From assembly GCA_028554795.2 (NCBI GenBank), contig CM068825.1, positions 95,228,951-95,292,950 on the forward strand: a stretch of DNA of 64,000 nucleotides, written 5' to 3'. Shown here in pieces: positions 2,863-61,012 of the stretch. The position numbers were made by a program, and so were the translations under genes. The notes under the pieces were generated by a model. The model searched no databases. It was not told the origin of the DNA and worked only from the letters and a program-made list of their open reading frames with translations. Origin of the DNA: Sinohyriopsis cumingii (lineage: Eukaryota > Mollusca > Bivalvia > Unionida > Unionidae). The first letter of the stretch is position 1; each line of letters opens with the position of its first letter.

Positions 2863-3077
2863 TACCATATATACTCGCTTTGAGTCCAACTATAAACTAC
2901 ACAGACCCAAATCTTGAGTCACATAATGTGCCTGCAGATCTAGGTCTGTGTAGTTTGTTAGGAGTAATAATCAGTGAACAAACTGTATAGAGCTGATCTG
3001 CTGGGGCATTATGCTATGAAAGATAAGAATATGTTGTTTGCAGTTTGACTTGACTTATAAGCGAGTATATACAGTAT
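2863..3077 (+). mobile_element. Twin-hairpin MITE, copy 1
   Basis: The ends are near-perfect inverted repeats (TACCATATATACTCGCTT on the left, AAGCGAGTATATACAGTAT on the right). Inside are two successive foldbacks: one with arms of the CACAGACCCA/TAGGTCTGTG type around a CAGATC core, and one ending TGTTTGCAG. There is no ORF. This is the copy with the best-preserved termini. Confidence 0.75.
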
Positions 3078-3528
3078 GCTACCATTACAGATTTATCAGT
3101 CAGAAAAGCAAAAATGTTAATTGATGAATGGACCAAGGCATAACATAAGATACCCATCTTAAGACAGGTACATACAAATTTTCATGGACTGACTTCATTA
3201 ATATAAACTTTTTGGATGGGAGGGTGTTTAGAATATCTTTCAGGTGCATAAACAGATCCATACTTTGTAAGGTTTAAAATTATATCTGAAACAAAATAGT
3301 CTGATAAATAATTTTTTTCTTTCTTCCAACAATGAGGTATATATGCATACATGTATGTCTCTGTATGTGCATATGTACAGAATTTATAATTCATATTATG
3401 CACCTATTGTTTATTGGTAAAATATATGAATGAGAATGACAAATGTTATTTCTATCCTGTGTATCATTATACTGTGAACAATATTTATTCTGTTATGTAT
3501 TTAACTATATAACAAAGATGACAAGAAT

Positions 3529-3570
3529 GCTGCTGCTGCTGCTGCTGCTGCGGCTGCTGCTGCTGATGAT
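3529..3570. repeat. CTG/GAT trinucleotide repeat
   Basis: About twelve CTG units with one CGG interruption, followed by three GAT units, lie in a kindlin intron. No exon overlaps it. Confidence 0.95.
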
Positions 3571-3916
3571 GATAATGGTCACTTTGATGTTCGTTTGATC
3601 TATTTTTCATGTTTTGTATACATTTATATCAATGCTCAAGTAATTACAAGAGTTGCTTCCTAAATTTACTATTCTATGTGTATCAGATGTGACCAGTAAC
3701 ATATATTTTGTTTTATCTGTGCTGAAGAATGAATTACACTGATTGAAATTTATTTTAAATAACCCCAACTTTTCATTGCCATCAGCATTCTTTGAGCTGT
3801 TCAATTATGCCTTTCCTTTTCCTTATTTCATTTATGTTATCCATTACTTTCTACTCACAATAAAATTTTCTACTGTATGATGAGGAGGAACTTGTTAATT
3901 TCTTCTTTCCTATCCC

Positions 3917-4155
3917 AAGACTTAAAAATGGTACTAACAGCTGCCTCGCTTGGCACTCAGCATTAAGAGACTAGTGTTAGGACTGGTCGGCCCGGTGTCA
4001 GGATAATATGACTGGGTGGGACATCATGCTACATGTCTGTGGCATGATGCCCCAGTGATAAACATCACTATAAACTGCCACACTGCAGATGTCATAGCGA
4101 TATGACTGAAAAATAGTTAAAGCTATGTTGAAAATCCAAATCACACACACACACT
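3917..4155 (+). mobile_element. SINE-B copy, 5'-truncated
   Basis: It matches the body of the SINE-B family (gcattaagag, gactgggtgggacatcatgc, gatgccccagtg, atatgactgaaaaat) and ends in a (CA)n tail. The tRNA-like head seen at 27947 is missing, a typical reverse-transcription truncation. Confidence 0.8.
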
Positions 4156-4499
4156 TTCCTATCCCTCTGCAAATATATTACTTTTATGGCATGGCAATAA
4201 AATATGTTTAAAGTAAACTGAACACTTCATGTGGTGTGTCAAGGGCAAGATACAGCCTGGCGGAGCCCATCCCTCTCCAGACTGGATGACCACAGCCAAA
4301 ATCCACTGATATGGTGTGGCACACCCTGGCCCTGAGCATGGTTGTTGAGCTCATCTTGGAGCCATTCCACCCTGGCCACTGACTTCATCGAGGAAGACTT
4401 CCGCCCAGTGATGCTGTGTTATCACCACAATATTTTACCCATAACTGGGAGACTCATGGGGGTGAGATCATCTTATTCCGTCCTGTATGGATCCAACAG

Positions 4500-6676
4500 A
4501 CCTGTACCACCGCCAATAGTTATTAATGACAATGTTTCACCTCCACCTGAAAATGATCAAAAAGCCAAACCAACCAAGAATCAGATTTGACCTTGAAAAA
4601 TTGAAAGATCCAAAAGTGGTAAATATACACCTCTGATAACCCTGGATGGCCAAGACACCGACCTCAAGTCCTTAACAATGACATTCAACACAGCTGTGAC
4701 TAGCACAGCTAGCAAGATCATTGGCAAATATCGTCGAACAAAGAAACCTTGGATTATAACAGATGTCCTTGAACTAAGTGACAAAAGAAGAGAATTGACA
4801 AAGGAAAAAAGAGATCATGAAGGAGCTAGAAAATACAGAGAGATAAACAACATTATCAGGAAAAGCATGAAAATGGCAAAGGAATCCTGCATAGAAAGAC
4901 AATGCTGCAAAATCAAAGACAGTTTGATTAGAAATGACAGCATGAAAGATCTCACAACCCATAAACAAGGGAAAACTACAACCATCCAAGACAAATCAGG
5001 AAAATGCCTCACAGAAGATCAAGAGATCCTAAAGTGATGGATAGAATACTGCTCAGAACTGTACAATCATTAGAGCCAAAGAGATCCAGCAGTACCAAAG
5101 TGTCCTCAGGCAGAGGAAATTAATGATGACCCCATTCTTCATGAAGAAGTAGAAATTGCAGTTAGGTAAGTAAAGAAAGGAAAGTCAGCTGGCAATTGAC
5201 AACATACCAGCCGTGCTCATTCAAGCAGGAGAAGAGACAGTCACAGTCCTAACAACAATCTGCAACAATATATGGCAGACAGGAGAATGGCCCAAAAGAT
5301 GGACTCAATCCTTGGTCATTGTGCTCCCCAAGAAATGAAACCTACAGCCAAAACTACAGAACCATCAGTTTTATCAGTCACCTGAGCAAAGTCATGCTGA
5401 AGATAATTCTCAATAGACTAAAACCTCAAGCAGAGAAAATTGTTGCTGAAGAGCAGGCCAACTTCCGAGCAGGAAGGAGAACCACAGAACAAATCTTCAA
5501 TCTCAGTCTCCTTTTCAAGAAATACCTTCAGCATCAGCTGAATCTATTTTACATCTTTACGAGTTCAAAAAGGTTTTTAATAGGGTATGGCATGCGGCCT
5601 TATGGGCAACTATGAGGAAGTACAACATCAGCTCAAAGCTGGTGCAGGTTGTTGAGCACCTCTATAACAAAGCCACCAGTGCTGTCCTCATCAATGGCAG
5701 CAGAGGAGATTGGTTTTGAACAACAACTGGAGTCAGACAGGGATGAATACTGTCACCTACACTCTTCAACATTTTCCTGGAGAGAATCATGGAGGATGCC
5801 TTACATGACCACAGGGGCACTGTCAGCATCGGAGGAAGAACAATCACCAACCATTGCTACGAAGATGATACTGATGGTTTAGCAAGAGATGAAAAAGAAC
5901 TGGTTGACTTGGTTGAACGCCTTGACACAACCTCTACAGCATATGGTATGGAGATTAGCACAGAAAAAACCAAACTGATGACAAACAACACCAAGAGCAT
6001 CAGTGCTGAAATAAAGTCAGTGGACAGAAGCTAGAAAAATCACAAGCTTCAAGTACTTGGGATCAATTATCACAGATAAGGGCTCAAAACCAGAACTACT
6101 TTGCAGAATTGCCCAGACAACAGCAACAATAACAAGGTTGAGACCAATATGGAAAGATACCGACATTGCATTTGGTTCCAAAATAAGGCTGATGCGCTCG
6201 ATTGTCATATCCCTCTTTATTTATGCTTGTGAAACATGGATGCTCACATCAGATCTACAAAGGATTCAAACCTTCGAAATGAGATGCAACTGCAAGATCT
6301 TGGGCATCTCATAACTGACCATGTAACCAATGAAGAAATCCAAAACAGGGTCCAACAAGCCATCAGATCCTACGAAGACCTCTTGACCACTGTAAAAGAA
6401 CATAAACTGAAGTAGTACGGTCATGTCTCAAGATCATCTGGACTGGCAAAAACAATCTTGCAAGGCACAGTGCGAGGGTGCAAAAGAAAAGGCAGACAGA
6501 AAAAGAGGTGGGAAGACAACATTAAGGAGTGGACAGGCATGGGATTTGGAGATTCCCAAAGGGCAGCAGAGAACAGGGAAGGATGGAGAGAATTGGTTGT
6601 AAAGTCAACTGTGGTATTCCAATGACCTCTTGGATGATGGTTGTGGTGGTGATGATGACGATGATGATGATGATGG
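4500..6676 (+). pseudogene. Decayed LINE (non-LTR retrotransposon) pol
   Basis: Fragments in several plus frames read through a non-LTR reverse transcriptase of the endonuclease/RT type common in marine invertebrates. They include a basic linker segment (KPWIITDVLELSDKRREL, near 4747), RT finger and palm motifs (NYRTISFISHLSKVMLKIIL near 5354; EEQANFRAGRRTTEQIFNL near 5450), GVRQG near 5729 followed at once by a stop, and the catalytic box as YEDD at 5858-5869 where FADD is expected. The C-terminal region (IRLMRSIVISLFIYACETW; then a zinc-knuckle-like tail) runs to about 6600. A (GAT)n tail closes the element at about 6631-6676, a usual 3' end for such LINEs. At least four frame changes and several stops make it non-functional. 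The endonuclease is missing or unrecognisable, so the left limit is approximate. Confidence 0.88.
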
Positions 6677-9049: not shown

Positions 9050-10200
9050 CTTTCTATGCTCTATCCAATGACACCCCCAAAAATGTTTTCTATGACTATA
9101 TCATACCAATCTTAAGACTATTTCTATGGCTACACCAATTGTACAACTCTAAAGCTACACCATACTGATCTAACCACTTTTTCTTTGTCTACATTCTGCA
9201 AATCTTACCACTCTTTCTATGGCTATTACCAACCAATCTTGCCACTCTTTCTATGGCTATACCAACCAGTCTTGCCACACTTTCTATGGCTATACCAACC
9301 AATCTTACCACTCTTTCTATGGCTACACCAATCAATCTTACCACTCTTTCTATGGCTATACCAACCAATCTTACCACTCTTTTTATGGCTATACCATCCA
9401 ATCTTGCCACCCTTTCTATGGCTATACCAACCAATCTTGCCACCCTTTCTATGGCTGTACCAACCAATCTTACCACTCTTTATATGGCTATACCAACCAA
9501 TCTTGCCACTCTTTCTATGGCTATACCAACCAATCTTGCCACTCTTTCTATGGCTATACCAACCAATCTTGCCACTCTTTCTATGGCTATACCAACCAAT
9601 CTTGCCACTCTTTCTATGGCTATACCAACCAATCTTACCACTCTTTGTATGGCTGTACCAACCAATCTTACCACTCTTTATATGGCTATACCAACCAATC
9701 TTGCCACTCTTTCTATGACTGTACCAACCAATCTTGCCACTCTTTCTATGGATATACCAACCAATCTTGCCACTCTTTCTATGGCTATACCAACCAATCT
9801 TGCCATTCTTTGTATGGCTGTACCAACCAATCTTGCCACTCTTTTTATGGCTGTACCAACCAATCTTGCCACTCTTTCTATGGCTATACCAACCAATCTT
9901 GCCACTCTTTCTATGGCTATACCAACCAATCTTGCCAATCTTTTTATGGCTGAAAAATATCGAACTTAGCATTCTTTCTATGGCTACATTATAATGATTA
10001 TTCCACCATTTCAATGGTTACCTCTAACTGATCTCACCAAGCTTTCCAATCGCTCCAGTCTTTCTATGCTTCATCATCCTGATGTTACCACTCTTTCTAC
10101 TGCTATACCATACTGATCTTACCACTGTTTCTATAATTACACCATGGCTACACCATACCAATTCTACTGATCTTTCTACAGCTACACCATCTTGATCAGA
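9050..10200. repeat. 33-bp minisatellite with decayed flanks
   Basis: The core (about 9209-9955) is some 22 tandem copies of a 33-bp unit of the form CTATGGCTATACCAACCAAT followed by CTTGCCACTCTTT. Central units are nearly identical. Units toward 9050 and 10200 are increasingly diverged, the gradient expected from ongoing unequal exchange in the middle. Because 33 is divisible by three and the unit lacks stops in several frames, it creates long overlapping ORFs on both strands that are not genes. Confidence 0.97.
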
Positions 10201-10234: not shown

Positions 10235-10376
10235 TGCACAAGTGCAAGTGAAATAGCCAATCCCAAACAACGTATTCAGATGTATCCGACGATAACCTAA
10301 AACATGTATTTCCTACACCCACCCACCCCATTTTCAGGCGAAAATTATAAAAATCTCCAGCTGTTCACGAGTTAAT
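10235..10376. mobile_element. Fragment of the 'CCCCTGG' TTAA MITE
   Basis: It shares with 18340-18514 the strings gtgaaatagccaat, ttcaggcgaaaa and the terminal region before gttaatg. Only one end is recognisable. Confidence 0.5.
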
Positions 10377-10824
10377 GCACTGGCAGATTAGAGTCTATAA
10401 TGTTGGTTCTACTAATTACTCATAACTTACTGCACAGAGGCAGATCTTCTGGTACATGGATCCATCTTGCATGCAAGTATATGTTATGTAATAGTTAAGT
10501 TACATGTATAATGTACTTAATAATAAGGCGATCTCACATTAAGGTGATATACTCTATAGCTCCCATGTTCAGCATTATAACAAGGCAGTACTGTATTACT
10601 GAACTGTCACTTTAATTTGACCTTCACACTGATGGCAATCTAAACTGCATATCATTTCCCAGATCTGCAATTCATACAATATTTGCCTACAGTTCTGCTG
10701 AAACTCATTTTTCTGAAATCGCGGTGCCATACAAGCAAAAGTTTTCAAGTCTGCTAAAATATTTTCAAGATAAAAGTTCCCAAGCTAAAAATTTCATGCA
10801 AGTATCAATTACAGACATCCTTCT

Positions 10825-11103
10825 CCATGTGTTGAGGGGCCCCGAGTGGCCGAGTGGTCTAAAGCGCTCACCGTTCCGGATCATTGCCATCTCACCTCTG
10901 TCTGCGTGGGTTCGAGTCCAAGGCTCGGCTAGCATGGGTACGTGGGAAAGCCTGCCAGTAGCTTCTCGTGGGTCGGTGGTTCTTCCCTGAGTTTTCCAGG
11001 GTTCTTCCTCCACCATTTATACTGGCCGCCATGTATAGCCTATCTTGTGCTGAAAAATGGCGTTAAACCCAACAACAACAACAACAACAACCATGTGTTG
11101 AGG
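10825..11103 (+). mobile_element. SINE-A copy 1 with target-site duplication
   Basis: A 253-bp SINE (10838-11090) is flanked by the perfect 13-bp direct repeat CCATGTGTTGAGG (10825-10837 and 11091-11103). The head is tRNA-derived, with an A box TGGCCGAGTGG at 10847-10857 and a B box GGTTCGAGTCC at 10909-10919, spaced as in a Leu/Ser-type tRNA gene. The body ends atggcgttaaaccc, then an (AAC)n tail. This is the best-preserved copy of its family here. Similar 3' ends are widespread in molluscs, which supports the taxonomic guess. Confidence 0.95.
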
Positions 11104-11275
11104 TTACCTGACTATATTAGGTTGGACGAATGTAATGAAAACATTTTGCAGTGCAATAACAAACAAGACTATACATATATTCTTACCTATCCTTTATCTA
11201 TAAATGTTGGAATGAAGTTACCTCTTCAAAGATGAAAGTAACAGAAAATTTGATCTTCCCATTCATTCTACTTCA

Positions 11276-11482
11276 CGTATTTACTTATAAGTCGGGTCAA
11301 ACTGCAAAACCCAGATCTACTGTTGCATACTCTGCTGGCAGATCTGGGTCTATGCAGTTTCTTAGGCATAATCAGCAGAACAAACAACACAGACAAAGAT
11401 CTGCTAGCACATTATGCAATGGCAGATCTGGGTCTATGTTTTTTGCAGTTGAATCCAATTAAGAAGCAAGTACGGATGGTAT
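11276..11482 (+). mobile_element. Twin-hairpin MITE, copy 2
   Basis: Two foldbacks in tandem: AACTGCAAAACCCAGATCT pairs with AGATCTGGGTCTATGCAGTT, then ACAGACAAAGATCTGC pairs with GCAGATCTGGGTCTATGT. Outer ends include acttataagtcgggtcaaac on the left. There is no ORF beyond chance. Confidence 0.85.
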
Positions 11483-13888: not shown

Positions 13889-14539
13889 CTAATCTATCCC
13901 TTCTCTTTCACTATGCAAGGGATATTCCAGTGGAGCATCTATTTCAAGTTCTATCATTACAGCGTCATCTCCGGTAACCAATGAACACACTACATTCAGT
14001 ATCCCTTTCTCTAACGCGTCTTCATGCCTTTCTACAGGTTGTATGCCGATCAAGGGTATTTGGCCTAGGGGAACACGTGAAACCCTTAGACACAGTTTTC
14101 TGACATACGTCACAAGACCGACAAAACTTACTACATCACTATTTACACCAGGCCAGTAGATCTCCGCCAGTACTCTCCTGATTGTCTTTCCCATACCTAG
14201 ATGACCTGCCATGCTAGATTCATGGCTACCCTCAGTAAACGAGACCGGTATTTCTGAGGTACTACTAATTCAAATATTTCTTTCCCCCTTGTTGGTCAAC
14301 TCCCCATGAATTAACCCATTTCTTTTGACAAACTTTGAACTACTCCCTCCTTTACAGCGTTTAATGTAGTTAGACACAATTTTCTCGTTAATTGAACTTG
14401 TGGATGTGTCGCACTCTTGCTCCCAAAGGAATTCGTCACGTGAGATTCCTTTGATTGATTCGGGTATGGTTAATTTCCACTGGGTTTGAGCTCGCATTTC
14501 AACGGCAGGAGTTAAAATCTTCCATAGTCGGATACACAA
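13889..14539 (-). pseudogene. Integrase H2C2 zinc domain and linker, DDE core deleted
   Basis: The left frame holds the spacer before integrase. From about 14212 down comes the integrase HHCC region: MAGHLGMGKTIRRVLAEIYW, PGVNSDVV, then in a frame shifted by one base CRSCDVCQKTVSKG with both cysteines, and VPLGQIPLIG. Directly after this, where the DD(35)E catalytic core should begin, the sequence continues with VERHEDALEKGIL, which belongs to the linker between integrase and RT. The whole catalytic core has thus been lost by deletion. No joined protein is implied; frame breaks are present. Confidence 0.75.
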
Positions 14540-15840: not shown

Positions 15841-16241
15841 AATGTGTGCATATATTGAAAGAAAGTCCGATGAATACACAAAAAAGTGGTTGCTATACGA
15901 CTCCTGCAGTATGATGCAGGACCCTAAAAATATGATACAATTATTGATTACAGCAAAAAAGTTAATTAAATGACTACCACTTCATCAGACCTCTCAGCCA
16001 TAAACATGAATGACGAGTCCCCTGGACACTCAATTCATTATGCATACATTTATGTCATTTCAGAAAACCAATTATCCAGTCAAATACAAGTCTAGTAATG
16101 AGTCTCAACAATAGATATTTTAATTCATTTGGAATGTATACATTTGCAAAAGTTCAGTCTTTTTCCAGAACAGGAAGGAGAATTAAGATCATCATGGTAA
16201 AGCTACTTCTGTCTGGTTGAGCTTGATGAACATCTCCATGA

Positions 16242-16440
16242 ACCATATGTACTTACTTATAAGTCAAGTCAAACTGCAAACAACAAAGATCCTGATCTGC
16301 CATAGCATAATGCATTTGCAGATCAGGTCTATGTTGCTTGTTCTGCTGATTACTCCTAACAAACTACAAAGATCTGAATCTGTCGGCACATTATGTAATG
16401 GCAGATCTGCGTTTATGCAGTTTGCAATTGGATTCATCTT
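16242..16440 (-). mobile_element. Twin-hairpin MITE, copy 3
   Basis: It starts accatatgtacttacttataagtc. The GATCCTGATCTGC-type hairpin comes first and the CAGATCTGCGTTTATGCAGTTTG-type second, so relative to copies 1 and 2 it is inverted. It lies immediately beside the kindlin F2 exon. Confidence 0.85.
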
Positions 16441-16601
16441 CCACTCTAGCTTATTTCCAATTCACTAGAAATGCTTTTTTGTAGAAGAAACAGCATCAAA
16501 AAAGAAAATTTCAAGTTAATATCGACAACAACCTCCAAGATATCTGATCTCAAAATTTCAAACAAAAAAATCAGTTTTATGAGTTAAAGGCATCCAAGTA
16601 C

Positions 16602-16881: not shown

Positions 16882-17003
16882 TACATACATGTACTTGCTT
16901 AGGAGTCCAACTGCAAACCTCACATACCCAGATCTGCTGTTGCTTAATGAACCAGCAGATCTGGGTCCATAAAGTTTGCTAGAAATAATCATAATAATGG
17001 CTA
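16882..17003. mobile_element. Twin-hairpin MITE, half copy
   Basis: Only one foldback is kept: ACCCAGATCTGCTG pairs with CAGCAGATCTGGGT around a short loop, preceded by aggagtccaactgcaaac. Confidence 0.75.
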
Positions 17004-18144
17004 ATCAGTTAACAATCATTAAATTTCAACTGATTCCCAACACTTTTAAAACTGAGCACAATTAATGTTTGACCTCTGATACATCTCTAGTCCTTGTTAT
17101 GATATACGATCCATAAAGTATGGAGGCTTTTGCATGTATGTGTGTGTGTTTATGTGTGTGTGTGTTTCCCACATTCTTGCTAACTTCATCATTTCACGAT
17201 ATTTTATATATGTCATGTCCAATGGTTGATTTCAATCAGATTTCACATTTACCCAGAAGTTTTGTAACCTGAATGCATGAAATGGTTTCTACTGAATTCT
17301 TTTCAGCATAGTGACTGCAGCTTAAGTTTTGTAAAAATGTGAAGAAAAAATAAGATGTAATTCCTAAGGCAATAGCACATACTGATAGTGACTACCTAGG
17401 ATTATCAAACATGCTGCAATTAAATTTCTGTCTCTGATGTAACATTTTCCAGCTGTGAAGAACATCTGGCAAAGAAGTGGAAAAAGGCATTTTGCCAGAT
17501 GAAATGTGTATCTGAGAAAAACATAATCTACACAAGCAGTGTGACTATGTCCCTTACATTTCATGTAAACAAGATTATATGATCTGATTATCATGTTAAA
17601 CCATGCACTGCACCACAAACCCTGATATATAGCATATCTTATAGGAGTAGAATTCCATTCATTTTTTTGAAGCTCAACTAACAACTCTCACCAGTACCAA
17701 CCTCCCCCTTCTCATACTTATAATTCTGTTGCAGAGACTTGACATTAAAAAATGTACCAATACTGTCTCTCATTTTTCGTGCACAACTGATAAAAAAGCC
17801 TCTATATCACTCCCTCAATATAATGCTGCCCATAAAATGAAGTACACATCCCAAACATTCTATCATGTTGATTTTACATATTTTACTAAATCCTGCTAAT
17901 AAGTCTTTCTAAAGTTAAGGCATAATTACTATGTACAGTCTATTGATCACAGCTGCAGTCACCCACATCTTCCTGATAATAAACTCAATTAATTAAAACA
18001 AAAAAACTGCTTCAATAGCGGTGGTGAGGTCAGCCCATCAGATGCAAGATAACCTCATTATTATGATGGATCCTGCGTACTTTCAAAACTGCTTAAGATC
18101 TTGATTATATCAATCCATAGTCCAATTTTGATCAAAAACATGTG

Positions 18145-18994: not shown

Positions 18995-19036
<42 letters not shown>
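18995..19036. repeat. (TA)n microsatellite
   Basis: About eighteen TA units in intron sequence. Confidence 0.95.
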
Positions 19037-19038
<2 letters not shown>

Positions 19039-20655: not shown

Positions 20656-21442
20656 GATGATGGAAGATGCAGGAAAGACATGGGGTTATACAATAAGCAC
20701 ACCTGGCTGTTACGGTCAGGCAACATGTAAAGTGTGTAACAAATGACAAAAAAATGACAGTATCAAATAGAACAACAGAAACATACAGATATGGCAGACT
20801 GATGAGTCTTTGAAAACAAACTTATTCACTACCTGAAAAAACTTTGAGGTCACATTATAACACTAATACGTTTGACAAACTTTTATTATTGCCAAAAGAA
20901 ACAATTTTTTTTTCTTCTTTAAAGACAGAAACAAACAGTGCAGGGCTTGCAACTAGCTGCGAATTATGTTCATCAAAGATATATAAAAAAAAAAACCAAT
21001 ACTGTTTCATGATGGTTAAAATGTCATATACAGTTCGACTCTTTCAGTTTTTAACAGAATTTTCAATGCAAAACTTTTAGCCGTTTTATGTTTCTTATAG
21101 GCAATAAACTACAGCATGCAACATAGACTATGTTTCTAACAGACAGTTCCTAAGCCTGCAGCTAAACAATAATGATACAGAAGAATAATGGCCTACAATG
21201 GAACAAGGACATGTGTCTGATTGACAGACAAACAACAATTTGTAGTTTGTCTAGAGTTATGCAACAGATGCTTCCCTGATGAGGGATGTCAGCATAAAAT
21301 TAAGCATAACAACACCCAAACCTGTCAAAATAACAAGCTAGCAGATGGGAGGGGTCAACCCCCTGAGAGAACAGATGTACAACTAATTGAAGACCTTGAC
21401 ATTGATTAGCAAACTGCTGCATGTTTTTACAGCTGTATTACT

Positions 21443-21664
21443 GGTACCAGCTTTACCCACAAGTCAAAGCCAACTGTAATCTACATAGATACAAATCTAC
21501 CTTCACATAATGCAAGAACAGAACTGGATCTTTGCAGATCATTAGGAATGACCAGTAGAACAAACAACATTGATCCTGATCTGCTGGTGCATTATGCAAT
21601 AACTGATCAGCATCCATGTGGCTTGCAATTAAATTTGACTTTTAAGTGAGAACAGATGGTAATT
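21443..21664 (+). mobile_element. Twin-hairpin MITE, copy 4 (diverged)
   Basis: The left hairpin is heavily decayed. The right one keeps TGATCCTGATCTGCTGGTGC, the cattatgcaat loop and a matching arm, then a gacttttaagtgagaacagatggta terminus. Confidence 0.65.
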
Positions 21665-24365: not shown

Positions 24366-25133
24366 TACTTAATTCCACTAAGTACATTATGACTTTCTTC
24401 AAACCCACTACCATACATGCGAACTCCATAAAATTCAGCCACATAATGGTGAAAATAAAAAAATTGCTCATTATAAAGACAATCAAACTTGATGTAGGTC
24501 TCCAAAAAATTTAAAGCCTGACATCAAATTTGGTTTCAATCAATCAATGAAGATCAAACTTGGTCAAGGTCTTCTCGTCATACATCCTTGTACCAAATTT
24601 CATTTGAATTCAAGTCATTCAAAAGTTATTGACCAGAAATCTATAGGTAAATTTTGACATCAAAAGAGAGGCCACAGCTCAACAAATATTTACCAAAAAA
24701 TGTTGAAAACTGAACTTGACCAACGTCATCCCAATTTAAAGCTTCTTATGAAAATCAGTTTCTACAAACAAGTCCTTAAAAGTAACTGAGTGGGAAAAAA
24801 AAGTTTGACATGATAAGATGGACATGATAAGATGGAAGGACACTGCTGGTTCAATGCCCTAAAGGGGGGGGGGGGTGGCTTGATAAACAAGCATGTATTC
24901 TAAGTGATCTATGCCACCATGAGTTTGGCAGTTTTAAAAAAAAAGTATGGGAAGTGGGAATGACATAATTGAGCTCCTAATGTCTGACATACAATGCGAA
25001 TTACTACATCATAAATCAACTTTTTCCCTGCTATTATCAGTTGATCTTTGGCTCTTGTCCAATATGCAAATAACACAGAATGCCAGAATACAGCATATGT
25101 AATTCTTCTGGATAAATTCACAATCCTAAAAAC

Positions 25134-25345
25134 TACAATCACTCACAAGTTGAGTCCATCTGCAAACTGCACAGACCCAGATCAGCTGTCACACAATGCA
25201 TCAAAAGATCTAGGTCTAAAGAGTTTGTTATGAGTAAATGGTAGAACAAACAAGAGAGACTCTGATCTACAAGAGCATTATGCATTATACTACAGTATAT
25301 CAGGGTCTATGCTGTCTGCAGTTGGACTTTTATATATACTGTAGG
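25134..25345 (+). mobile_element. Twin-hairpin MITE, copy 5
   Basis: Left foldback CACAGACCCAGATCAGC with a decayed partner, right foldback CTCTGATCTACA with GTATATCAGGGTCTATGCTG. It ends gttggacttttatatatactgta. Confidence 0.75.
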
Positions 25346-35140: not shown

Positions 35141-35142
35141 AT

Positions 35143-35425
35143 AATTCTATAACACATATTAAATCAGAAGTATGTGGCAGAAAACATAAACCTTGACCTG
35201 CCATCACAAAATGACCTGGCAGAAGTTCAGTCAAACTGCAAACAACAAGGCTCATGATCTACTGTGGCACAATGCACCTAGTGATCAGGGTCTATGTTAT
35301 TTCTTCTACTAATTACTGCTAAAAACACTGCACAGACCCAGATCTGCAGGTAAGTTATGAAATGGTAGATATGGGTCAGTGCAGTTTGCAGTTAGACTAA
35401 TCGTATAAATGAGTATATATTGTAT
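35143..35425 (-). mobile_element. Twin-hairpin MITE, copy 6, extended form
   Basis: It has the GATCAGGGTC-type hairpin first, then CACAGACCCAGATCTGC with its partner, ending taaatgagtatatattgta. The left part (35143-35230, agaagtatgtggcagaaaac) is shared almost base for base with 42727-42820. Confidence 0.8.
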
Positions 35426-40919: not shown

Positions 40920-41130
40920 TACCATATACTTAAGCTTAAAAGTTAAAACCAACTGCAGACAACATAGACCTTGCTCTGCTGTTGTACTCGAAGATTAAGT
41001 TCTCTGTTTTTCATATTATACTAATTACTCCTAACAGAATGCACAGACCTAGACCTGCAGACACATTACGAGACATCAGACCTGGGTATGGGTGTGCAGC
41101 TGGACTCGACTTATAAGAAGAAAAGATGGT
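40920..41130 (-). mobile_element. Twin-hairpin MITE, copy 7 (diverged)
   Basis: It starts taccatatacttaagctt, keeps acatagaccttgctctgctg and cacagacctagacctgcag arms, and ends gctggactcgacttataag. Both hairpins are decayed. Confidence 0.7.
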
Positions 41131-41999
41131 ACTGAACTTAAAAGGATGTGCAGTCGTTTTTCACATTTGGGATGCACATCCTTGAGGCAATAAACATTCA
41201 ACTCAAACACCAAAAGGAATGCAGCTGTGATAATTATTTTGAAAATATTCATAATAGTGTGTTGAAGCATGAAAATAAATCTTTGCTGCAGTATGAATTT
41301 TTACTGAAAACAGGGATCTGGGGCTGAGGAGGGGTGGTTCTTACATTTAAGATCAATTACAGAGATTTCTATTTAAACTTACTTTTGTAACTTCAACACT
41401 TGAAAAGCTAAACATTGTTCTAATTATGAATTTACATTGTATCTCTCAGGAATTATATAAACACACACACATGCAAAATAATATCGACAGAACAAATAAC
41501 TCACTAATGTAGATATTATACTCAGATAATTTACAACAAATTACAAAAGAAAAATTTAAAACTCGGGTGAAATGAGTATTAATACAGCTATGGTCAATAA
41601 AGCAAGATGTCAATCGAGAGAAAAAAATATATAAACAAATGACAATTAATGTAAAGAATTAAGAAAATATTGTATATTCCAAAAGTACTAACTCTGCATA
41701 TTTCTAACTTTTACATTATGCAGGCAAACATTGAAATAATAAATCTCCCTATATTTTGTCTAAATTATCAATAATAACTCATCAAAAATAAATTGCAGTT
41801 CTTTGAAACAGTATGCCTTATCTCCCAATAAAGCATTTCACTATGTCCCCCTTGACGTTTACTGCTCTAGTTTCTTTATAATAAATCTAAGCAAAGGTTT
41901 AAATATGACCTTATTCTATCTAAGAAGAAATAAAATAGAGTAGACACCTGCAATAAATTAGAAAATTCCAACCAAGCTGGAAAGGACTGATGCCCTAAG

Positions 42000-42726: not shown

Positions 42727-42935
42727 GATATATAATTCTTTAACACATACTAAATCAGAAGTATGTGGCAGAAAACATAAACCTTGAACTGCCATCACGT
42801 AATGCACTGGCAGAAGTTGAGTCAAACTGCAAACAACAAAGATCCTGATCTACTGTGGCACAATGCAACTGGTGATCAGGGTCTATGTTATTTGTTCTAC
42901 TGATTACTCCAAACAAACTGCAAATTCCCAGATAA
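42727..42935 (-). mobile_element. Twin-hairpin MITE, copy 8, extended form
   Basis: It shares taaatcagaagtatgtggca and the following ~180 bp with copy 6 at 35143. The second hairpin is cut off after CAAACTGCAAATTCCCAGAT. Confidence 0.8.
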
Positions 42936-42939
42936 TGTA

Positions 42940-45775: not shown

Positions 45776-45789
45776 GACAGTTATCAGCC

Positions 45790-47399: not shown

Positions 47400-48590
47400 C
47401 CAAATCTGATAAAAATTCTTCCTAAAGATAAAGGCATAATTAAAAGACATGGATCTGGTTCCTAATAATCCGGTTAATCTCAACATAAACCTATTTAACA
47501 AATCCAATCAAAACCAGACAACAAAAAGGTCTCTGCAGAGGTAAAAAGCTCAGTCAGTCTGATGGAAGATAAACTTACTAACATGAACAGATCCAACATA
47601 AATAAATCCCATTTAAGACTAAGATGACATAAGCTTATTTACAAGATCTGAACAAAATCTAATAAAAAATGTGGCTGCCAGAGTGGTAACAAACTCAGCA
47701 AATCAGAAACAAAATTACTTCATATGTAGGGTTAGATCTTGATCATATTCAAACTCAATCATCTTGATGATGTAAAGATTACAAATACAAGTTTGATAAA
47801 AAATCTTATCAGAAATAGTGTTGCTAGACTGTTGACAAGCTCATCCATTCCTATGCCACATTATGCATGGAGCTCCACCCAATAAACATACTTTTCCAGA
47901 ATCTTGAGCACATAAGCCCATTTACCAAGACTTCAACATTATAGTGTGTAAGCAAGCTCAGCTAATCTGTGAGACACCTCAATGATATGTAAGGATCTTG
48001 CCAATTATCAAACTCCTATGAGATCTTGAGATAACCTCATACTAGAAGTTTAATCAAATGGGATCAGAAATACAGCCTCCAGAATGGTAACAAGTACAGC
48101 CATCAGATGCAAGATCACTTCATTATTATGCATAGAACTTGCTCATTATTGAAATCATACAAGATGGTGCAGACTCGAGTCTATATTCCAAGTTTCATCA
48201 TAATCGTTTATCCAAGATTTTGATAAATCATGTTCATTTGCTAAGTTATATTACAATTATTTCAGAAGTCTCTGGCATAGTAACAAGCTCAACCAAACAG
48301 ATGCAAATGTACCACATTAATATGCATGGCTGTTGCTCGTTACTCACCCTGTCTGAGACCTTGATTATATTAGCTTATTTTCTAAGTTTGATAGAAAAAC
48401 AAAGTAAGCCAATGAGGTGCAAGATTACCTAATTAATATGGTCGGACCTTGCTCCTCAATGAAACTGTCTTCGTGGCATAAGCATATTGTATTCAGCTCT
48501 ATAACCAGTGAAGTTAAAAAGGACTGGAAGAGTGGTAACATGCTCAGCCAATCAGATGCAAGAACACCTCACCAATGTGTCAATCTTGTT
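47400..48590. repeat. ~160-bp tandem repeat array (R160), main copy
   Basis: About seven units of the same family as 19800-20440: agagtggtaacaagctcagc, caatcagatgcaagat, cattaatatgcat, cttgctcattattgaa, and ccaagtttgatc. Similarity between units looks moderate, suggesting an old array. Confidence 0.8.
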
Positions 48591-50129
48591 CATTAAGCCA
48601 AATAAATCATTATGTTTTGTTCTGGTTACCAGACAAACCCTAATTTTAACTTCTGACCATACATTTTTTAAAAACAAAATAATACTCCAAATAATTCAGA
48701 AGGAAATAAAATTTCACAAAGGGATGTAGCTAAAATTGAAGCTAAATTAAGACTGGGTTTTTTTCCCTGGTTTATGCTCTGTTTAAATCCATCAAGACCA
48801 AACACATATTTGCAATGACCTACCTACTCTACTTTTTGTTCTCAGTGTAACCAGAACCACATATTTTTTATTTGGCTTTATCAAACTCATCCAAGACCTT
48901 CATAATATAAGCTTTTTTTGAAGATTAATAGAAACTGGATCAGAAAAATAACCTCCAGAATGATAACAAACTCAGCCAATTAGATATAAAGACACATTAT
49001 TAACAGACCTGCCAACCCTAACAAGACCTTCTCAGTAAGGCAGTCCATTAACTTCCAAAAGTTAGACCAGTTTTCAGCAAGGTGTAACTCAATATCATTT
49101 AATGCTATTGTAAAGCTGGAAAACATGCATAAAAGTCCAGAAGTGAGTTTCAAGACTGATGCAGTGATGGTAAGCACTGTCTTCAACTAGGCGTAAAAAG
49201 TTTGTAAAGTTTACATTAACCTTAAATACCTCCAGTACAGTTTCACAAATTGTAGTTGCAAACTCTATGGAGCTCCATGGCTTCTTGCTATCTCTCAACT
49301 TGATGTAATCTTATTTAAATTTCATCTGGGCTGTGGTGATGGCAATCATATTTTTCACCATGTGACTTACTCAAATCAACACATGATGTCCACTCAACAT
49401 AACTGCTACCCTTCCTGCTTTTCTCTCCCAAGAAACTGAATAGTCCCTTTTATTCTTCTGTACTGATATTAAAACTTTGTAAGAGGTTTATTTTTCATTT
49501 CATCCTGAAGATGTATCACTTGATGGATACCATTTTTAAAAAGAAATATCCAGCAGCTTGATCTGCAGATGTTTCACATTAAAAAATATGCTCAGTTTAA
49601 AGCATTTGAGGTACTCCTGTAAAGTTTGTCTGGTTCTCGTACCAACTTCATTGAATCTAAAATGAAACCCCAAACTGAATCAAACATGGAAAAGTTAGAA
49701 TCTGGAACTTACCACAATCATATTTCCATAATTTGTTCTGTTATTCCATACGACCATTTATTAGGGGTCATTTCTGTAAGACTTATTGGTAAAATCGGAA
49801 GGTTTGTATTAATATGCAATAAATCCATCCAGGAGATAAGCCTAATGGCCACGTGAGCTAAACATGCATCCTCTGAAGGGACTAACATTCTACTGGCTGA
49901 AAAGAACTTCCAGGTATCCATTATAAGACCCTTTTACTCTTTGCAAAGTACTAAATACTCAAACCATCTCTAACATTGCAAGAAACTCCAACATACTAAA
50001 TGTAGAAAAAAAACACTATTTTCTTATGTTTGACTTAACAGGTTCACAAGATATCTGTAAGTGTGGCACAGGTTTTATTTGTCACTGCCTTTTACCTTGA
50101 ACCTGAAATCAGACAGAGATATCACTGAA

Positions 50130-50245: not shown

Positions 50246-50899
50246 ACATTCGAAGACTGGTTTAATCTGCAAATAATACTTTTTGGAAACAAAACCAAGT
50301 TACTTAAGTGTCATCAATCAAAATATTTTTCAGATATATCCACAAACTGGATTAAGTTCAAACTTATAACCCAGTACAACCTTTGAACTTTAAAATGCAT
50401 ATCAGAGTGGTGATTATCAATATGTAATTGGAAAGCAACAAAATACAAAGTCTGAACACTTGTAATTGGAAAGCTACTAGAAGTCACAGTGTTCATAAGT
50501 TCAATGAAGTACAAAAATGCACACATAAAACCTTTGAACGGATCATAAGATCAATTAAAAGTTCTTCATGAAAGTGCAGATATGTTGGTAGTCCGATCTG
50601 CACTATTTTCATCCTGAAACATTGCAATAAGTGCTTTTGTGAAAACTCCATATCAATCCCATGATTCATGCAAGACTAGTAGTTTGGGTGTGGGAGGAGG
50701 GAATTATGTCATTTACCTCAAAATTTTAGGTACGATCCCTGCAATAGCACTGATCAAAACTGGAAATGATCCAATATCTCCTGATCATTAGTCTGCAATA
50801 TCAACCACAAGACATATCAGAGCAGCAGTGTTGCTACTGTATCCTAAAAATATAGTTTGCCATACACAGGCATAAGCCCTCTTTTTCTCTTTTACTTAC

Positions 50900-51135
50900 G
50901 CAAAGTTTGCTCTTGCTTTCTCTACATAATTCTTTGGCCTGTTGAGCATCAGGAAGGCATCTTTGGTGGAAATGGGTGGACTGTTTGCAAGAGCCGACTC
51001 CATGGCACTTTCGAAAGTTAAGCTGTACATGGATCCTGGTGACAGGGTACCATTCAATAAACTTGTGTTCTGGGGTGATAGTGTGTTATATGGACTGCTG
51101 GGAGCACCTGGTGATCCTATATTTGATAATGTGTT
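50900..51135 (-). CDS. FERMT: Kindlin exon: rest of F1 loop into F1-F2 boundary
   Basis: The exon starts in phase 0 after a TTTCCAG acceptor and ends two bases into a codon before a GTAAGT donor at 50894-50899. It encodes about 78 residues. The first two thirds are low-complexity, rich in Ser, Pro, Asn and Leu with repeated Ser-Pro steps (SPGAPSSP, LSPQN, LSPGS), consistent with the disordered F1 insertion loop. The last third (TFESAMESALANSP, then RPKNYVEKAR) matches the kindlin segment leading to the 'KA(K/R)xN' motif that precedes the F2 start. The Ser-Pro steps could be proline-directed phosphorylation sites; that is inference only. The antisense strand is also open here but shows no similarity and is a shadow. 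Confidence 0.93.
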
Positions 51136-51955
51136 CTGGAAAGAGAAGAGATAAGAATTTGGATGAAACTTCAAAGGTTAATTTTGATCTGTTTGTTTAT
51201 TTTGATATTCTGAATCATGACTGTGTCCAACTGTTTTGTATTAAATTGTGCACTTACCCAATAGACAATACAATCATGTTGTAGACTACAAAGTTTGACT
51301 CATCTGAGAGCAAAAGGTCACAACTTGCATCTGTACTTATACTTGTCAGATTGACACCATCTTCATTTCAGACCAAGAAGACATTTTTTTAAAAAAATCT
51401 TTAAGAGATAACCCATATTGATAAGACCATTCCTTCAGATGAATTTTGAGACACAACAATTTTCATGATGGCTACTGTGGTGACCATACTGGATATCTGA
51501 GAGGCACCATGTTCATTTAGGACCATCAAGACCACAGGATGAATGTTTGTGTAATGTTTCATAACAATTCTACATGTTATTTAGGAGGAGTAACAATAAC
51601 AAACTGGTGCTAATGGACTTCTGAACAATGGATGATGCACAACAGACCATCCCACAAGCTCTTCAAGGTTCGATATATGTATACTTTTTACACGGTTATC
51701 TTGAATAGGCAAAGAGAAGTTTGAAAAAACAGATATGAACATTTAACAGCATGTCTACCTTAAAATGTGTTCACTATTACAATTGATCAGGCTAAGCATG
51801 ATATTATGTAGAATGGCCAAGTCAGCATAAATGTGGGCAGACCATGGAGACATATTTTTTGATCTGTGTGATATCTTGAATGCGAAATGGTTCTCTAAGA
51901 TTTGGGTAAAATATAATAAGTAGAGGATGCCATAATGAATACATAAAGCACCAGT

Positions 51956-52765: not shown

Positions 52766-53283
52766 TTACGACATATACTTACTTGTAAGTTAAGTCTATT
52801 TTCAAACTGCTGAGTGTGTGTGTGATTTAGATTTTTAACGTAGCTTTTAAAAAATTCAGTCATATCACTATGATGCCTGCTGTGTGGCAGTTTATAGTGA
52901 TGTCTAGCACTGGGGCATCATGCCATAGACATGTAGCATTATGTCCCACTCAGTCACATTATCCTGACACCAGGCCAATCAGTCCTAACACTAACCTCTT
53001 AATGCTGAGCGCAAAGCAGAAAGGTAGCTGTTAGTACCACTTTTATAAATCTTTGGTATGACTTGGCCGAGGATCGAACCCACGACCTCCCACATCCAAG
53101 TTGGACACTCTAACCACTCAAACTGCTGAGAACAGATCTGCCATTGCATAATATGCCAGCAGATCTGGGTCTATGCAATTTGTTAGGATTAATCAGCCAA
53201 ACAAAAAACCTAGACACTGACATGCTGGCACACAGTTTGCAGTTGTACTTGACTTATAAGCAAGTACATTGAATATATGGTAT
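52766..53283 (-). mobile_element. Twin-hairpin MITE, copy 9, split by a SINE
   Basis: The left part (52766-52814) carries acttacttgtaagttaagtc; the right part (53131-53283) carries agatctgccattgcataata, a matching arm GGCAGATCTGGGTCTATGC-like, and acttgacttataagcaagta at the end. The two halves join at the SINE target duplication TCAAACTGCTGAG. Confidence 0.85.
52802..53130 (-). mobile_element. SINE-B copy inside a hairpin MITE
   Basis: The SINE (52815-53117, 303 bp) is flanked by the perfect 13-bp duplication TCAAACTGCTGAG (52802-52814, 53118-53130). On the minus strand it starts GTGGTTAGAG inside the A box, has a B box GGTTCGATCC, the full body, and ends in a (CA)n run. This copy gives the best estimate of SINE-B length and ends. 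Confidence 0.93.
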
Positions 53284-53339: not shown

Positions 53340-53616
53340 CCATAATGGGGTCCCTGAGTGGCCGAGTGGTCTAAAGTGCTCTCCGTTATGGATCACTGCC
53401 ATCTCACCTCTGTCTGCGTGGGTTCGAGTCTAGGATTCGGCTAACATAGGTATGTGAGAAAGCTTGCCAGTAGCTTCTCGTGGGTCGTTGGTTCTTTTTG
53501 GGGTTTTGCCGGGTTCTTCCTCCACCATTAATACTGGCTGCCATGCATAGCCTATCATGTGCTGAAATATGGCATTAAACCCCACAACAACAACAACAAC
53601 AACAACCACCATAATG
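53340..53616 (+). mobile_element. SINE-A copy 4 with target-site duplication
   Basis: The SINE is 53348-53608, flanked by CCATAATG (53340-53347, 53609-53616). A box TGGCCGAGTGG, B box GGTTCGAGTCT, body, then (AAC)n. It lies 57 bp from the hairpin MITE. Confidence 0.92.
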
Positions 53617-55135: not shown

Positions 55136-55240
55136 TTTCCTAGACTGCATGTATCACATATCTTCAAAGACTTGGCACCACTTAGCATGTGACACTGCCA
55201 AGTGTTTTCAAAGAGGTGACAGTATGCCTCCAATAAAGAG

Positions 55241-55441
55241 ATATATATGCGTCCAACTTCAAACAACATAGGCTTTGATCTGCCAGCATACTTTGTGCTG
55301 GCAGATCATGGTCTATGTTGTTTAATCCACTAGTTAAACAAACTGCATAGACCCAGATCCACTGGCAAATTATGTGACAGCAGATATGGCTGTATGCTGC
55401 CTTCAGTTGGATCTGATTTAAGTGTGATTACATACGGTACC
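55241..55441 (-). mobile_element. Twin-hairpin MITE, copy 10
   Basis: AACAACATAGGCTTTGATCTGCC-type arm with GGCAGATCATGGTCTATGTTGTT-type partner (18-base-class stem), then CTGCATAGACCCAGATCC with a decayed partner. It ends gtgattacatacggta. Confidence 0.85.
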
Positions 55442-58299: not shown

Positions 58300-59148
58300 T
58301 TGATAACTGGTTTGTAGGAAATTTGACAGTATTGTACATTTTGATGAAAATAGGGACAATTCTGTGGGGGAAATTTATATTTTAGGCAGTGGGGAGGGAA
58401 CATGATCTTGACTTCACTGAAATGAACTGAGTGGACGATACACTAGATAACTGGTATTTTTTATTTAGATATTGATTAATGATGAAGACATTGATGATTT
58501 TCAAGATAAATGGACTTTTGAAAACTTTACTGCTCATAACTTTTGCACTTATGCAAATGTTGGATGTGTGCATAATACGAAATTTGACTGCATTCTTGGA
58601 AATGGACCAAAATAAGCCATAAAAACAATGATATTTTTGCATCCAAAATTAACAGCTTTGTTGACTTTCCAATTCTCACTTGAGTAAATTTAATAAAATT
58701 GTACAACCTTTGACATCCTTTATTATTTTTTCACCACCCTGAATATTACAATTAATGTAAAATTCTCCCACCCCCACTCCTGCATTTCATACACTTACAT
58801 ATAAGAGGTAAAATGAATATTGCAGATAAAACTGCACAGAAAGAAAGCATGATTTGTAGTTTACTTTTACTTGACTTTACTTTTGACTGAACACATTTTA
58901 CATTTGAAAATATCTGGTAAAAATAATTATACCATTGAAGAAAACTTATGCATTTAAAATGTTATATAACTTTGAACAACTATTTTAAAAACTTGCCCTG
59001 CAAAGCCAGATATACTAAAGTCACTGCATTCTCTCATGAATACACTACAGCCTGAACAAATTTTCAGTTCTACACAACTGTTAGTCTGACTGGGCTTCAT
59101 AACGAAAAGGGTTAAATGAGTTGCATGGGGCATCAAGGTTGTACTTAC
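58300..59148. other. Intron sequence, nothing recognised
   Basis: gggacaattctgtggggaaa occurs twice just after the satellite. Otherwise nothing supported. Confidence 0.55.
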
Positions 59149-59369
59149 TGATGGTGAAGGGCCCATTGGACTTCTGTTAAATGGACTAAGGCGATCAAGG
59201 CTGTTGTTGGAGAGATGGTGAGAAGTATTTCCATTTATTCCGACAGGTTCCTCCTTCAATTCTTTCTTCTTTTTCTTCTTATCTTGATTTAAGTTTTCTT
59301 TAATGTTCTTTTTTAAATCATCTTTATCAAACTTTTTCATCAATGATAATTCCTCCGGATGCCTTATTC
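59149..59369 (-). CDS. FERMT: Kindlin exon: F1 lobe with lysine-rich loop
   Basis: This exon begins with two bases completing a split glycine codon after a pyrimidine-rich tract ending in CAG (acceptor at 59370-59371), and ends in phase 0 before a GTAAGT donor (59143-59148). It encodes about 73 residues. The opening motif IRHPEELSL is a kindlin F1 signature. It is followed by an acidic/basic stretch and a run of seven residues containing six lysines (DKKKKKK), then a Ser/Asn/Pro-rich tail ending GPSPS. In kindlins the F1 lobe carries a long disordered loop whose poly-lysine segment binds acidic phospholipids; the lysine run here sits where that loop is expected. A read-through ORF extends into intron on both sides, but splice sites and homology define the exon. 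Confidence in identity is high; the exact donor is the best of two overlapping options. Confidence 0.93.
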
Positions 59370-60279
59370 CTGAAATAAAATTGAGAAGAAACAATTTATT
59401 TAAAAATGAGAAACAAAAGTCAAATATCATAAAATATCTGTTGGGCCTTTTTAATTAAAGAATTGGGTCTGTTTGTGCATTTAATGTTTAGCAGCACATC
59501 AATACATACTAGGTCACACAGTGCAAAGTCACATTAGGGTGGCAGATCTGGTTTGGAAGAGAAAACTTGGACTGGAACATTCAAATAGCATGAATGGTCA
59601 TGTTAGGTCAACCTTGAAAGAAAACTTCACTTGCATTTGCAGTGATTGGTTAAGCAGATTAATATTCATGGAAAATGTGGAAGGCATACTGCAATCCCAA
59701 AAACACTTTCAAGGAGCATTTTACCTTTATGGAATTTAATTTTCTTTGGATGTTACTTCGTTTATTCCTTTAAACTGATATAAAAGGAGAAGAAAAAACA
59801 CATGCATAATTACCATGCCATCAGAGCCAATGACTGTTACCACATGTACATCTGCTATCTACCCATGTCATGTGTCAGTTGGATCCACCCAATTTTATCC
59901 AACTTTATGTATCTGTTTGCCCATTGTTTCTTGAAAAAATTTACATTCTTTATTTCTCAAAGTACAAATACATTTTATTCACTTTTATTGTTGGTATTCT
60001 GTAAAATAAACTTAAAGAGTTCTGGGAAAATTCAAGGAGTGTATCAAGACATTCAAGGTCTTTTGGAAGATAAAAAAACTGAGGATTTTTCAAGGCTGTA
60101 CAAACCATGATTTCCATTCCAGGTTTGAACAGCAAAGCAATCAAGTGAGATATATGGACCTAAATGCCAAAACAAGACTTTCAAAGCAAATGCTGCTGAT
60201 TATATCAATGACGATAATGCCTTCAACAATAATTACCATTAGGTCCATCCCATCTACAATAAAACCTCAACATTTTGAG

Positions 60280-60427
60280 TGTTATGTATATTTGATTTAA
60301 TTATATCTGATTTAATTGTTTGTAAGTTTTAAAATCTTTTTTTTAAATTTTAATTTCAACTAATTTGTAAGCTTGTTGTTTTCACTCTTTCTTGTGTTAC
60401 TGTTTATTCGAGCCTAGACATGTAACA
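60280..60427 (+). mobile_element. LTR-like block, family L2, internally deleted copy
   Basis: It starts TGTTATGTATATTTGATTTAA and ends CATGTAACA. Its last ~60 bp (from gcttgttgttttcactcttt) are nearly identical to 38590-38649, but the middle ~770 bp is gone. Confidence 0.65.
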
Positions 60428-60841
60428 TAAGATTGGGTAATAAATGTTACTGCAAACTTGAAAATCTTATTATAAATAATCAAATACTGACTTATGATTA
60501 GTCAGAATTTCGAGTTGGATTTGGTGTCTAGTTTTATAATGAAAAGACAGAAGATGGGCATCAGATTGCAGGAAAGCTCCCAAAATTTCCCCCGAGATGA
60601 TCTGTTGTCGCCATTCCAAAATTCATGATTTGTAAATTAATAATAATCTCTTGTCTCCAATCCAAAATTCATCATTTGTAAATTAATTAATAAACATTTT
60701 CACATATTGAGCCCTCTGACCAATAAACTAGTCACAACACTTTTAATTAAATTGTATTTCATTCCATCCACAATAACAAAAACTGATTTGTAAGTGAACA
60801 TATTAACATTTTGATATGCAGTATCATTTATATTTCCTCTG

Positions 60842-61012
60842 AACTTGGATCCAAATGCAAGCTTCAAAGACCCAGATCTGCTGCCGCATGATGCAGTCTG
60901 TTCAAAGTGATTAGTATAACAAACAACACTGCCTCTGATCTGCCAGCATATTATACAACAGGTCAGGGACTGTTATCTGACGTTGGTTTTGACTTTTGAG
61001 TATATATGGTAT
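60842..61012 (+). mobile_element. Twin-hairpin MITE, copy 11
   Basis: Left arm AAGACCCAGATCTGCTGCCG without a clear partner; right arm CTCTGATCTGCCAGC with GGTCAGGGACTGTTATCTGA. It ends ttgacttttgagtatatatggta. Confidence 0.7.

What the first reader, a model, noticed from the sequence alone, without database searches (positions are those of the whole stretch)
2863..61012. A dense family of ~200-bp twin-hairpin foldback elements
Twelve copies lie at about 2863, 11276, 16242, 16882 (half), 21443, 25134, 35143, 40920, 42727, 52766, 55241 and 60842. Full copies have outer inverted ends ('TATATACTCGCTTATAAGTC'-like) and two separate internal palindromes. One has CAGACCCAGATCTGC arms, the other GATCCTGATCTGC arms, and both have a GCATTATG-type loop. 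The order of the two palindromes switches between copies, as expected when whole elements insert in either orientation. No transposase or ORF is present. An outer inverted repeat enclosing two self-complementary modules is not the usual MITE plan and I cannot match it to a named family. The two stem types share the core GATCTGC, suggesting that the modules arose by duplication of one palindrome.
Basis: partly seen in the sequence, partly recalled or inferred. Interest (0 to 1): 0.75.

Follow-up and report, generated by a model that had tools for sequence, protein, structure and literature searches.

The report
Palindromic miniature transposon of pogo family
The repeated twin-hairpin elements are real copies of a small, protein-less jumping gene that carries the same end sequences as a larger pogo-type (Passer) transposon elsewhere in the same genome, so the family is ordinary in kind but unusual in its nested palindrome layout.

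Summary
A profile finds 14 copies or fragments in the window (two more than listed), none in 20 shuffled windows, and the window's own 2.9 Gb genome (perhaps a bivalve, by inference) holds thousands of candidates. Modal length is 221 bp including a TA at each end. One copy inside a 30-bp tandem array gives an empty site: the target TA is duplicated. The whole element is an imperfect palindrome (178 of 222 columns match its own reverse complement), and each half holds a second, local palindrome; the 'two modules' are the two long terminal repeats. Longer elements (1.7-3.1 kb) share the outer 27 bp (23-27 identities). One has an open 520-aa frame with BrkDBD, HTH_Tnp_Tc5, DDE_1 and DD35D spacing, the published signature of the Passer family of the pogo superfamily. 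Beyond those ~27 bp the profile sees no similarity to the longer elements. Stems decay without clear excess of compensatory change, so nothing here supports a host function for the hairpins. Verdict: an old, abundant MITE family of the pogo/Passer type, not found in the papers searched, with an uncommon nested-palindrome anatomy. That the Passer transposase moved it is inferred.

The parts
2863..3076 (+). full copy, A module first, TA at both ends
   Evidence: nhmmer 172.6 bits; 12.9% from consensus; fold z -8.4
   Evidence: nhmmer 56.1 bits, E 9.2e-17
11269..11481 (+). full copy
   Evidence: nhmmer 153.6 bits; fold z -9.9
16241..16456 (-). full copy, reverse orientation, one end degraded (model 20-220 aligned)
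   Evidence: nhmmer 196.2 bits, 12.5% from consensus
16882..17011 (+). left half copy
   Evidence: nhmmer 75.5 bits, model positions 6-114 of 221
21436..21661 (+). full copy, 25% diverged
25127..25345 (+). full copy, 21% diverged, degraded right end
35219..35424 (-). copy whose B-module end is replaced by an extra half module
   Evidence: nhmmer 160.5 bits, model 2-201
35177..35223 (-). extra hairpin-like half module fused to the 35219 copy; same junction as at 42768-42814
   Evidence: nhmmer hit of 17.0 bits, E 5.8e-5; sequences
40920..41131 (-). full-length but decayed copy
   Evidence: nhmmer 110.4 bits; fold z -1.1
42768..42814 (-). extra half module, shared with 35177-35223
   Evidence: nhmmer hit of 19.9 bits
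42811..42949 (-). partial copy, model 82-201
   Evidence: nhmmer 108.6 bits
52767..52826 (+). left end of a copy interrupted by another repeat
   Evidence: nhmmer 14.6 bits, E 4.3e-4, model 2-47
53099..53282 (+). right part of the same interrupted copy
   Evidence: nhmmer 97.1 bits, model 37-215; the intervening repeat 52804-53118 has other copies in the window
55237..55439 (-). copy, reverse orientation
   Evidence: nhmmer 106.5 bits
60822..61011 (+). decayed copy, 27.5% diverged
   Evidence: nhmmer 24.1 bits, E 5.6e-7

Best explanation
[quoted passage not shown] It has no gene of its own. A Passer transposase, made by longer elements with the same 27-bp ends, most likely bound those ends, cut the element out and pasted it at TA dinucleotides, duplicating the TA. 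The 221-bp element is a head-to-head palindrome whose two long terminal repeats each contain an inner palindrome, so a single strand can fold either as one long hairpin or as two hairpins. The copies in the window are old and decaying, and the hairpins show no sign of host use. Shown: ends, TA duplication at one empty site, dyad anatomy, decay, ends shared with transposase-bearing elements. Inferred: that the Passer transposase moved it, and that the double palindrome arose by inverted duplication.
For: Sharp boundary at TA in 37 aligned genomic loci: agreement in the flanks mostly 0.2-0.5, at the left TA above 0.8, and mostly 0.6-0.99 in the end columns that follow. Empty site in L003: 30-bp tandem units read ACAAGC-TA-(A/T)CTTGAG, the occupied unit has TA on both sides. 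Of 123 sequences examined 93 had both ends recognisable: left TA 85, right TA 69, both 63. Dyad identity 178 of 222; whole-element fold -139.1, local hairpins only -94.5 kcal/mol. 78 of 78 exact 27-nt end matches lie in this family. The CpG-intact form of the end finds 573 places, reversed control 0. Bounded longer elements L159 (1.67 kb, ends 27/27 and 24/27) and L160 (1.79 kb, 26/27 and 23/27) enclose transposase remnants; L161 has the end 26/27 plus an open 520-aa frame with BrkDBD 2.6e-11, HTH_Tnp_Tc5 1.7e-12, DDE_1 1.2e-25 and 35 residues between the second and third D. 12 end places lie within 3.6 kb of a fragment of this transposase, 12 of 12 on the same strand (one of them is the element the query came from). 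BrkDBD, HTH_Tnp_Tc5 and DD35D are the published Passer signature (PMC7386202, passages seen).
Against: The MITE profile matches the longer elements only over the last ~27 positions, and there weakly (best 8.9 bits), and the MITE end differs from theirs at 1-2 of 27 positions, so the exact mobilising subfamily may be another or an extinct one. No fetched copy holds both ends and a complete frame: L161 shows no second end in the fetched 3.3 kb, L159 and L160 are internally deleted. The 30 best DDE_1 loci have quite different ends. Flank statistics cannot tell a TA duplication from a TA that belongs to the end (63 with both TA against 63.5 in shuffles); only the one empty site, out of 49 joined flank pairs tried, does. 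No polymorphic insertion or activity was shown.
Confidence: 0.91

Rival explanations
1. A host-selected structured RNA or microRNA-like family: the hairpins are transcribed and kept for a function.
For: Long stems in the consensus (24 pairs in module A plus 4 in its loop); the copies may lie in introns of a kindlin-like gene (one exon matched; gene extent by eye only). Compensatory cells in module A are 1.6 sd above shuffles.
Against: In 133 aligned copies paired cells equal the shuffled value (A 0.847 v 0.844, B 0.844 v 0.843, outer ends 0.864 v 0.866, inner dyad 0.844 v 0.845) and compensatory cells do not clearly exceed it (A 56 v 48.2 sd 4.9; B 23 v 22.2 sd 4.2; outer ends 35 v 45.5 sd 4.8; inner dyad 123 v 133.1 sd 7.8). 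Some window copies do not fold better than shuffles. No Rfam family at gathering threshold in the window.
Confidence: 0.04
2. A foldback (FB/Mutator-like) element with long palindromic ends and an 8-9 bp target duplication.
For: Very long inverted repeats with inner repeats, short spacer.
Against: No flank repeat of 2-10 bases stands out at three boundary offsets (largest excess under 2 sd); the empty site shows a 2-bp TA; ends match pogo/Passer elements.
Confidence: 0.01
3. A composite in which a pair of Passer ends captured an unrelated short palindromic element, so the inner modules have their own mobile history.
For: Inner modules not recognisably related to the longer elements; tandem gain of a module is visible in single copies such as L123 and L146, and in the window pair 35177/42768.
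Against: 78 of 78 exact-end hits match the profile, 72 over more than 150 of 221 positions (L141 keeps little beyond the ends and one arm). Modules alone were not searched genome-wide, so a free module is not excluded.
Confidence: 0.15

Closest known systems
Passer family of the pogo superfamily (IS630-Tc1-mariner group; PMC7386202, passages seen)
   Same: 27-bp ends, TA target, and linked transposase with BrkDBD, HTH_Tnp_Tc5, DDE_1 and DD35D
   Different: The window elements are 221 bp, non-coding, and recognisably share only the ends with the coding elements
pogo- and mariner-derived MITEs (Arabidopsis Emigrant, human MADE1; names recalled, the Arabidopsis pogo-MITE paper seen only in the reference list of PMC7386202, Made1 only in an abstract listing)
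   Same: Short, TA-flanked, no coding capacity, high copy number, ends shared with a coding element
   Different: Here each long inverted repeat contains its own palindrome, giving four alternating copies of a ~24-bp unit
Foldback elements (recalled)
   Same: Very long inverted repeats with internal repeats
   Different: 2-bp TA target duplication and pogo-type ends

Membership tests
MITE | short element bounded by terminal inverted repeats | tested here: met
   modal length 221 including both TA, 25 of 93 exactly 221, range 155-233; dyad 178/222
MITE | fixed target-site duplication | tested here: met
   TA at one empty site; TA at both ends in 63 of 93 copies
MITE | no coding capacity, many copies of similar size | tested here: met
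   221 bp; 3766 and 5498 first-look candidates in the genome, 40 scored in each search; 14 places in 64 kb here
MITE | ends shared with a transposase-coding element | tested here: met
pogo superfamily, Passer family (longer elements) | BrkDBD and HTH_Tnp_Tc5 DNA-binding motifs with DDE_1 | tested here: met
   L161; definition seen
pogo superfamily, Passer family (longer elements) | DD35D catalytic spacing | tested here: met
   35 residues between second and third D of the L161 frame, the three D assigned by motif, not by an alignment to known Passer proteins
pogo superfamily, Passer family (longer elements) | position in a transposase tree | not tested
   no reference transposases were fetched
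pogo superfamily, Passer family (MITE) | mobilised by the Passer transposase | not testable with these tools
   needs an excision or binding assay
Foldback / Mutator-like | 8-9 bp target duplication | tested here: not met
conserved structured RNA / miRNA gene | stems maintained by compensatory change | tested here: not met
   (module A 1.6 sd above shuffles, the other three structures at or below)

The most novel reading that the evidence does not exclude
A distinct architectural class of MITE, the nested-palindrome type, in which each terminal repeat is itself a hairpin; the inner hairpins contributed to the element's success, for instance by extruding as twin cruciforms that expose or multiply transposase sites or by driving module gain through replication slippage, rather than being inert filler.
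Probability: 0.1. Interest if true: 0.6.

Novelty: new member of a known kind. Interest (0 to 1): 0.3.

Why it matters
It names an abundant repeat that would otherwise stay 'unknown' in this genome, and ties it to a Passer-type transposase. It also gives a workable case (an empty site, measurable decay, visible module gain and loss) for asking how MITEs build complex palindromes. POGK and POGZ in vertebrates derive from Passer transposases (PMC7386202, passages), so Passer-MITE systems bear on what those proteins once bound.

Tried and rejected
Rfam scan of the window: nothing at gathering threshold. DDE_1 loci as direct partners: 0 of 30 fetched loci (of 150 scored, 2232 candidates) carry the MITE end, best 9 mismatches of 28. 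DDE_3 (Tc1-type) gave 9 matches from 110 candidates and was not followed. The first longer elements gave no convincing Pfam hit (L147, one of six frames; L148, six of six frames, only a DUF at E 0.088) and no convincing match to the 30 DDE_1 proteins (three hits at E 0.63-0.83); with the L161 protein both show a short transposase remnant. A longer target duplication (7 bp suggested by L141, 6 bp by L105) was tested over 93 copies and rejected. Of 49 joined flank pairs only L003 gave an empty site; the spanning hits of L021 and L027 are neighbouring copies of the element itself. Hairpin conservation tested and rejected. A first idea that the ends AAGTCGA/AAGACGA mark MITEs and AAGCCGA the longer kind holds in 13 of 14 and 12 of 12 fetched loci; L154 is the exception. 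Literature: seven searches on MITEs with inner hairpins, molluscs, cephalopods, octopus, pogo, Passer and one for four stretches of the end as letters (0 papers) listed no paper that I recognised as describing this element; listings, abstracts and some passages were seen, no paper was read whole, and the library lacks most subscription journals. PDB search with the L161 frame found nothing useful. Organism: I first supposed a cephalopod; 18 contigs of 81-193 Mb (lengths) plus C19 (at least 63.6 Mb) in 2.9 Gb suit a bivalve with n = 19 such as a freshwater mussel better, but the karyotype is recalled and this is inference only (one paper search, settled nothing).
Full report
Observation. The window (64,000 bases, G+C 35.35%) contains the described family. 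A first profile and a better one built from 37 genomic loci find every listed copy and two additional fragments (10352-10478 and the weak 62321-62497). The copy at 52766 reads as one element split by a ~300-bp repeat that has other members in the window. Twenty dinucleotide-shuffled windows give no match up to E = 1.

Anatomy. The majority consensus runs TA-CC(A/G)TATATACT(C/T)(G/A)CTTATAAGTCGAGTC, then module A, a ~20-base linker, module B and the inverted end, ending in GG-TA. It matches its own reverse complement in 178 of 222 columns, and folds as one long hairpin at -139.1 kcal/mol against -94.5 when only local pairs are allowed. Modules A and B are thus the two halves of one large imperfect palindrome, each being itself a palindrome. 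Read as units, a ~24-base sequence (CAAACTGCACAGACCCAGATCTGC-like) occurs four times in alternating orientation. Many of the most variable loop columns look like decayed CpGs, and copies with intact CpGs (for example L162 and L163) suggest that the founding hairpins were more perfect than the majority consensus; this last point is inference.

Insertion mode. In L003 the element sits in a 30-bp tandem array; empty units have one TA where the occupied unit has one on each side. This is the only empty site among 49 joined flank pairs tried. Of 123 sequences examined, 93 had both ends recognisable; 85 have TA on the left, 69 on the right, 63 on both (in the 78 pattern-derived loci the A of the left TA is fixed by the pattern, the T is not). 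No direct repeat of 2-10 bases exceeds shuffled flanks by as much as 2 sd at three boundary offsets; since nearly every site has TA, these statistics alone cannot show a TA duplication, the empty site does. TA duplication is the mode of the IS630-Tc1-mariner group (PMC7325037, passages seen).

Abundance and age. Searches of the window's own genome (2.905 Gb, 1138 contigs) gave 3766 first-look candidates for a window copy and 5498 for the consensus, 40 scored each. Among 133 aligned copies the median divergence from consensus is 12.8%, biased towards young copies by the way they were found; the 13 window copies in that set range from 11.7 to 27.5%. In 108.8 kb of flanks of 37 copies there are 27 further matches (E up to 1e-3), against none in 105.2 kb around 30 DDE_1 transposase genes, so copies seem to cluster regionally; part of the second sample is transposon body.

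Longer elements with a transposase. An exact 27-nt end pattern hits 78 places (reversed control 0), and 78 of 78 match this MITE, 72 over more than 150 of 221 model positions. Left and right ends often differ as CCA and CTG, which both follow from CCG by CpG decay; the CpG-intact pattern hits 573 places at up to one mismatch, the reversed control none. Of the fetched loci chosen from these hits, those with AAGTCGA or AAGACGA are MITEs in 13 of 14 (L154 is of the longer kind), and 12 of 12 of the rest, with AAGCCGA or near variants, lack the MITE profile. Among the latter are L148 (3.07 kb) and its deletion derivative L147, and L159 (1.67 kb) and L160 (1.79 kb), both bounded by facing ends and enclosing transposase remnants. 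L161 carries the end (26/27) and an open 520-aa frame with BrkDBD, HTH_Tnp_Tc5 and DDE_1 and 35 residues between the second and third aspartate; its second end is not in the fetched stretch. PMC7386202 (passages) gives these marks for Passer transposons and derives vertebrate POGK and POGZ from them. Twelve end places lie within 3.6 kb of a fragment of this transposase, 12 of 12 on the same strand, one being the source of the query. The MITE profile matches the longer elements only over the last ~27 positions.

Function of the hairpins. If the stems were kept, paired cells and compensatory changes should exceed shuffles. Paired cells do not: A 0.847 against 0.844, B 0.844 against 0.843, outer ends 0.864 against 0.866, inner dyad 0.844 against 0.845. 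Compensatory cells are 56 against 48.2 (sd 4.9) in A, 23 against 22.2 (sd 4.2) in B, and below the shuffled mean in the outer ends (35 v 45.5) and inner dyad (123 v 133.1). Some window copies do not fold better than shuffles. The simplest reading is neutral decay after insertion. Module gain is seen in single copies (L123, L146), as expected of palindromes prone to replication slippage; this mechanism is inferred.

Verdict. A MITE of the pogo superfamily with Passer-type longer relatives, not recognised in the papers listed, ordinary in kind, uncommon in its nested palindrome. Which Passer subfamily moved it, and whether the inner palindromes helped, remain open.

Noticed in passing
window 540-836 (-): Exon-like frame matching the PH domain of kindlins (fermitin family, E 1.6e-12 in PDB); frames at 50899-51177 and 58957-59454 look by eye like other kindlin parts but matched nothing. 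The copies may lie in introns of one gene.
   Followed up: partly
window 10832-11091, 22363-22628, 25781-26015, 53348-53605, 61040-61296: A ~260-bp repeat family, SINE-like by eye (ARAGORN found no tRNA in the window); all five copies lie within 702 bases of a twin-hairpin copy (permutation P 0.001-0.002, tested after seeing it).
   Followed up: partly
window 35128-35428 and 42718-42949: Two copies share an extra half hairpin and upstream flank, suggesting a variant that spread as a unit or a local duplication.
   Followed up: no
window 52804-53118 and eight other places: ~300-bp repeat family of 9 members, one inserted into a twin-hairpin copy.
   Followed up: no
window 9062-10144: 33-bp tandem array of more than 20 units, about 91-94% alike in the core.
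   Followed up: no
window 17987-20364 and 47507-49007; 42126-46473: Two families of diverged ~45-86-base repeats in loose clusters, often spaced 130-146 bases (D10/D12/D18 and D14).
   Followed up: no
window 5253-6031 (+) and 13892-14269 (-): Remnants of a LINE-type reverse transcriptase (RVT_1) and of a retroelement integrase zinc-binding domain.
   Followed up: no
own genome, e.g. L039-L068: 150 scored of 2232 candidate DDE_1 transposase genes, many with open frames of 573 or 599 aa and near-identical scores: several pogo-type lineages look recently active.
   Followed up: no
L021 1263-1720, L027 1501-1977, L169 21-321: Twin-hairpin copies or their ends lie side by side, about 15-35 bases apart in L021 and L027.
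   Followed up: no
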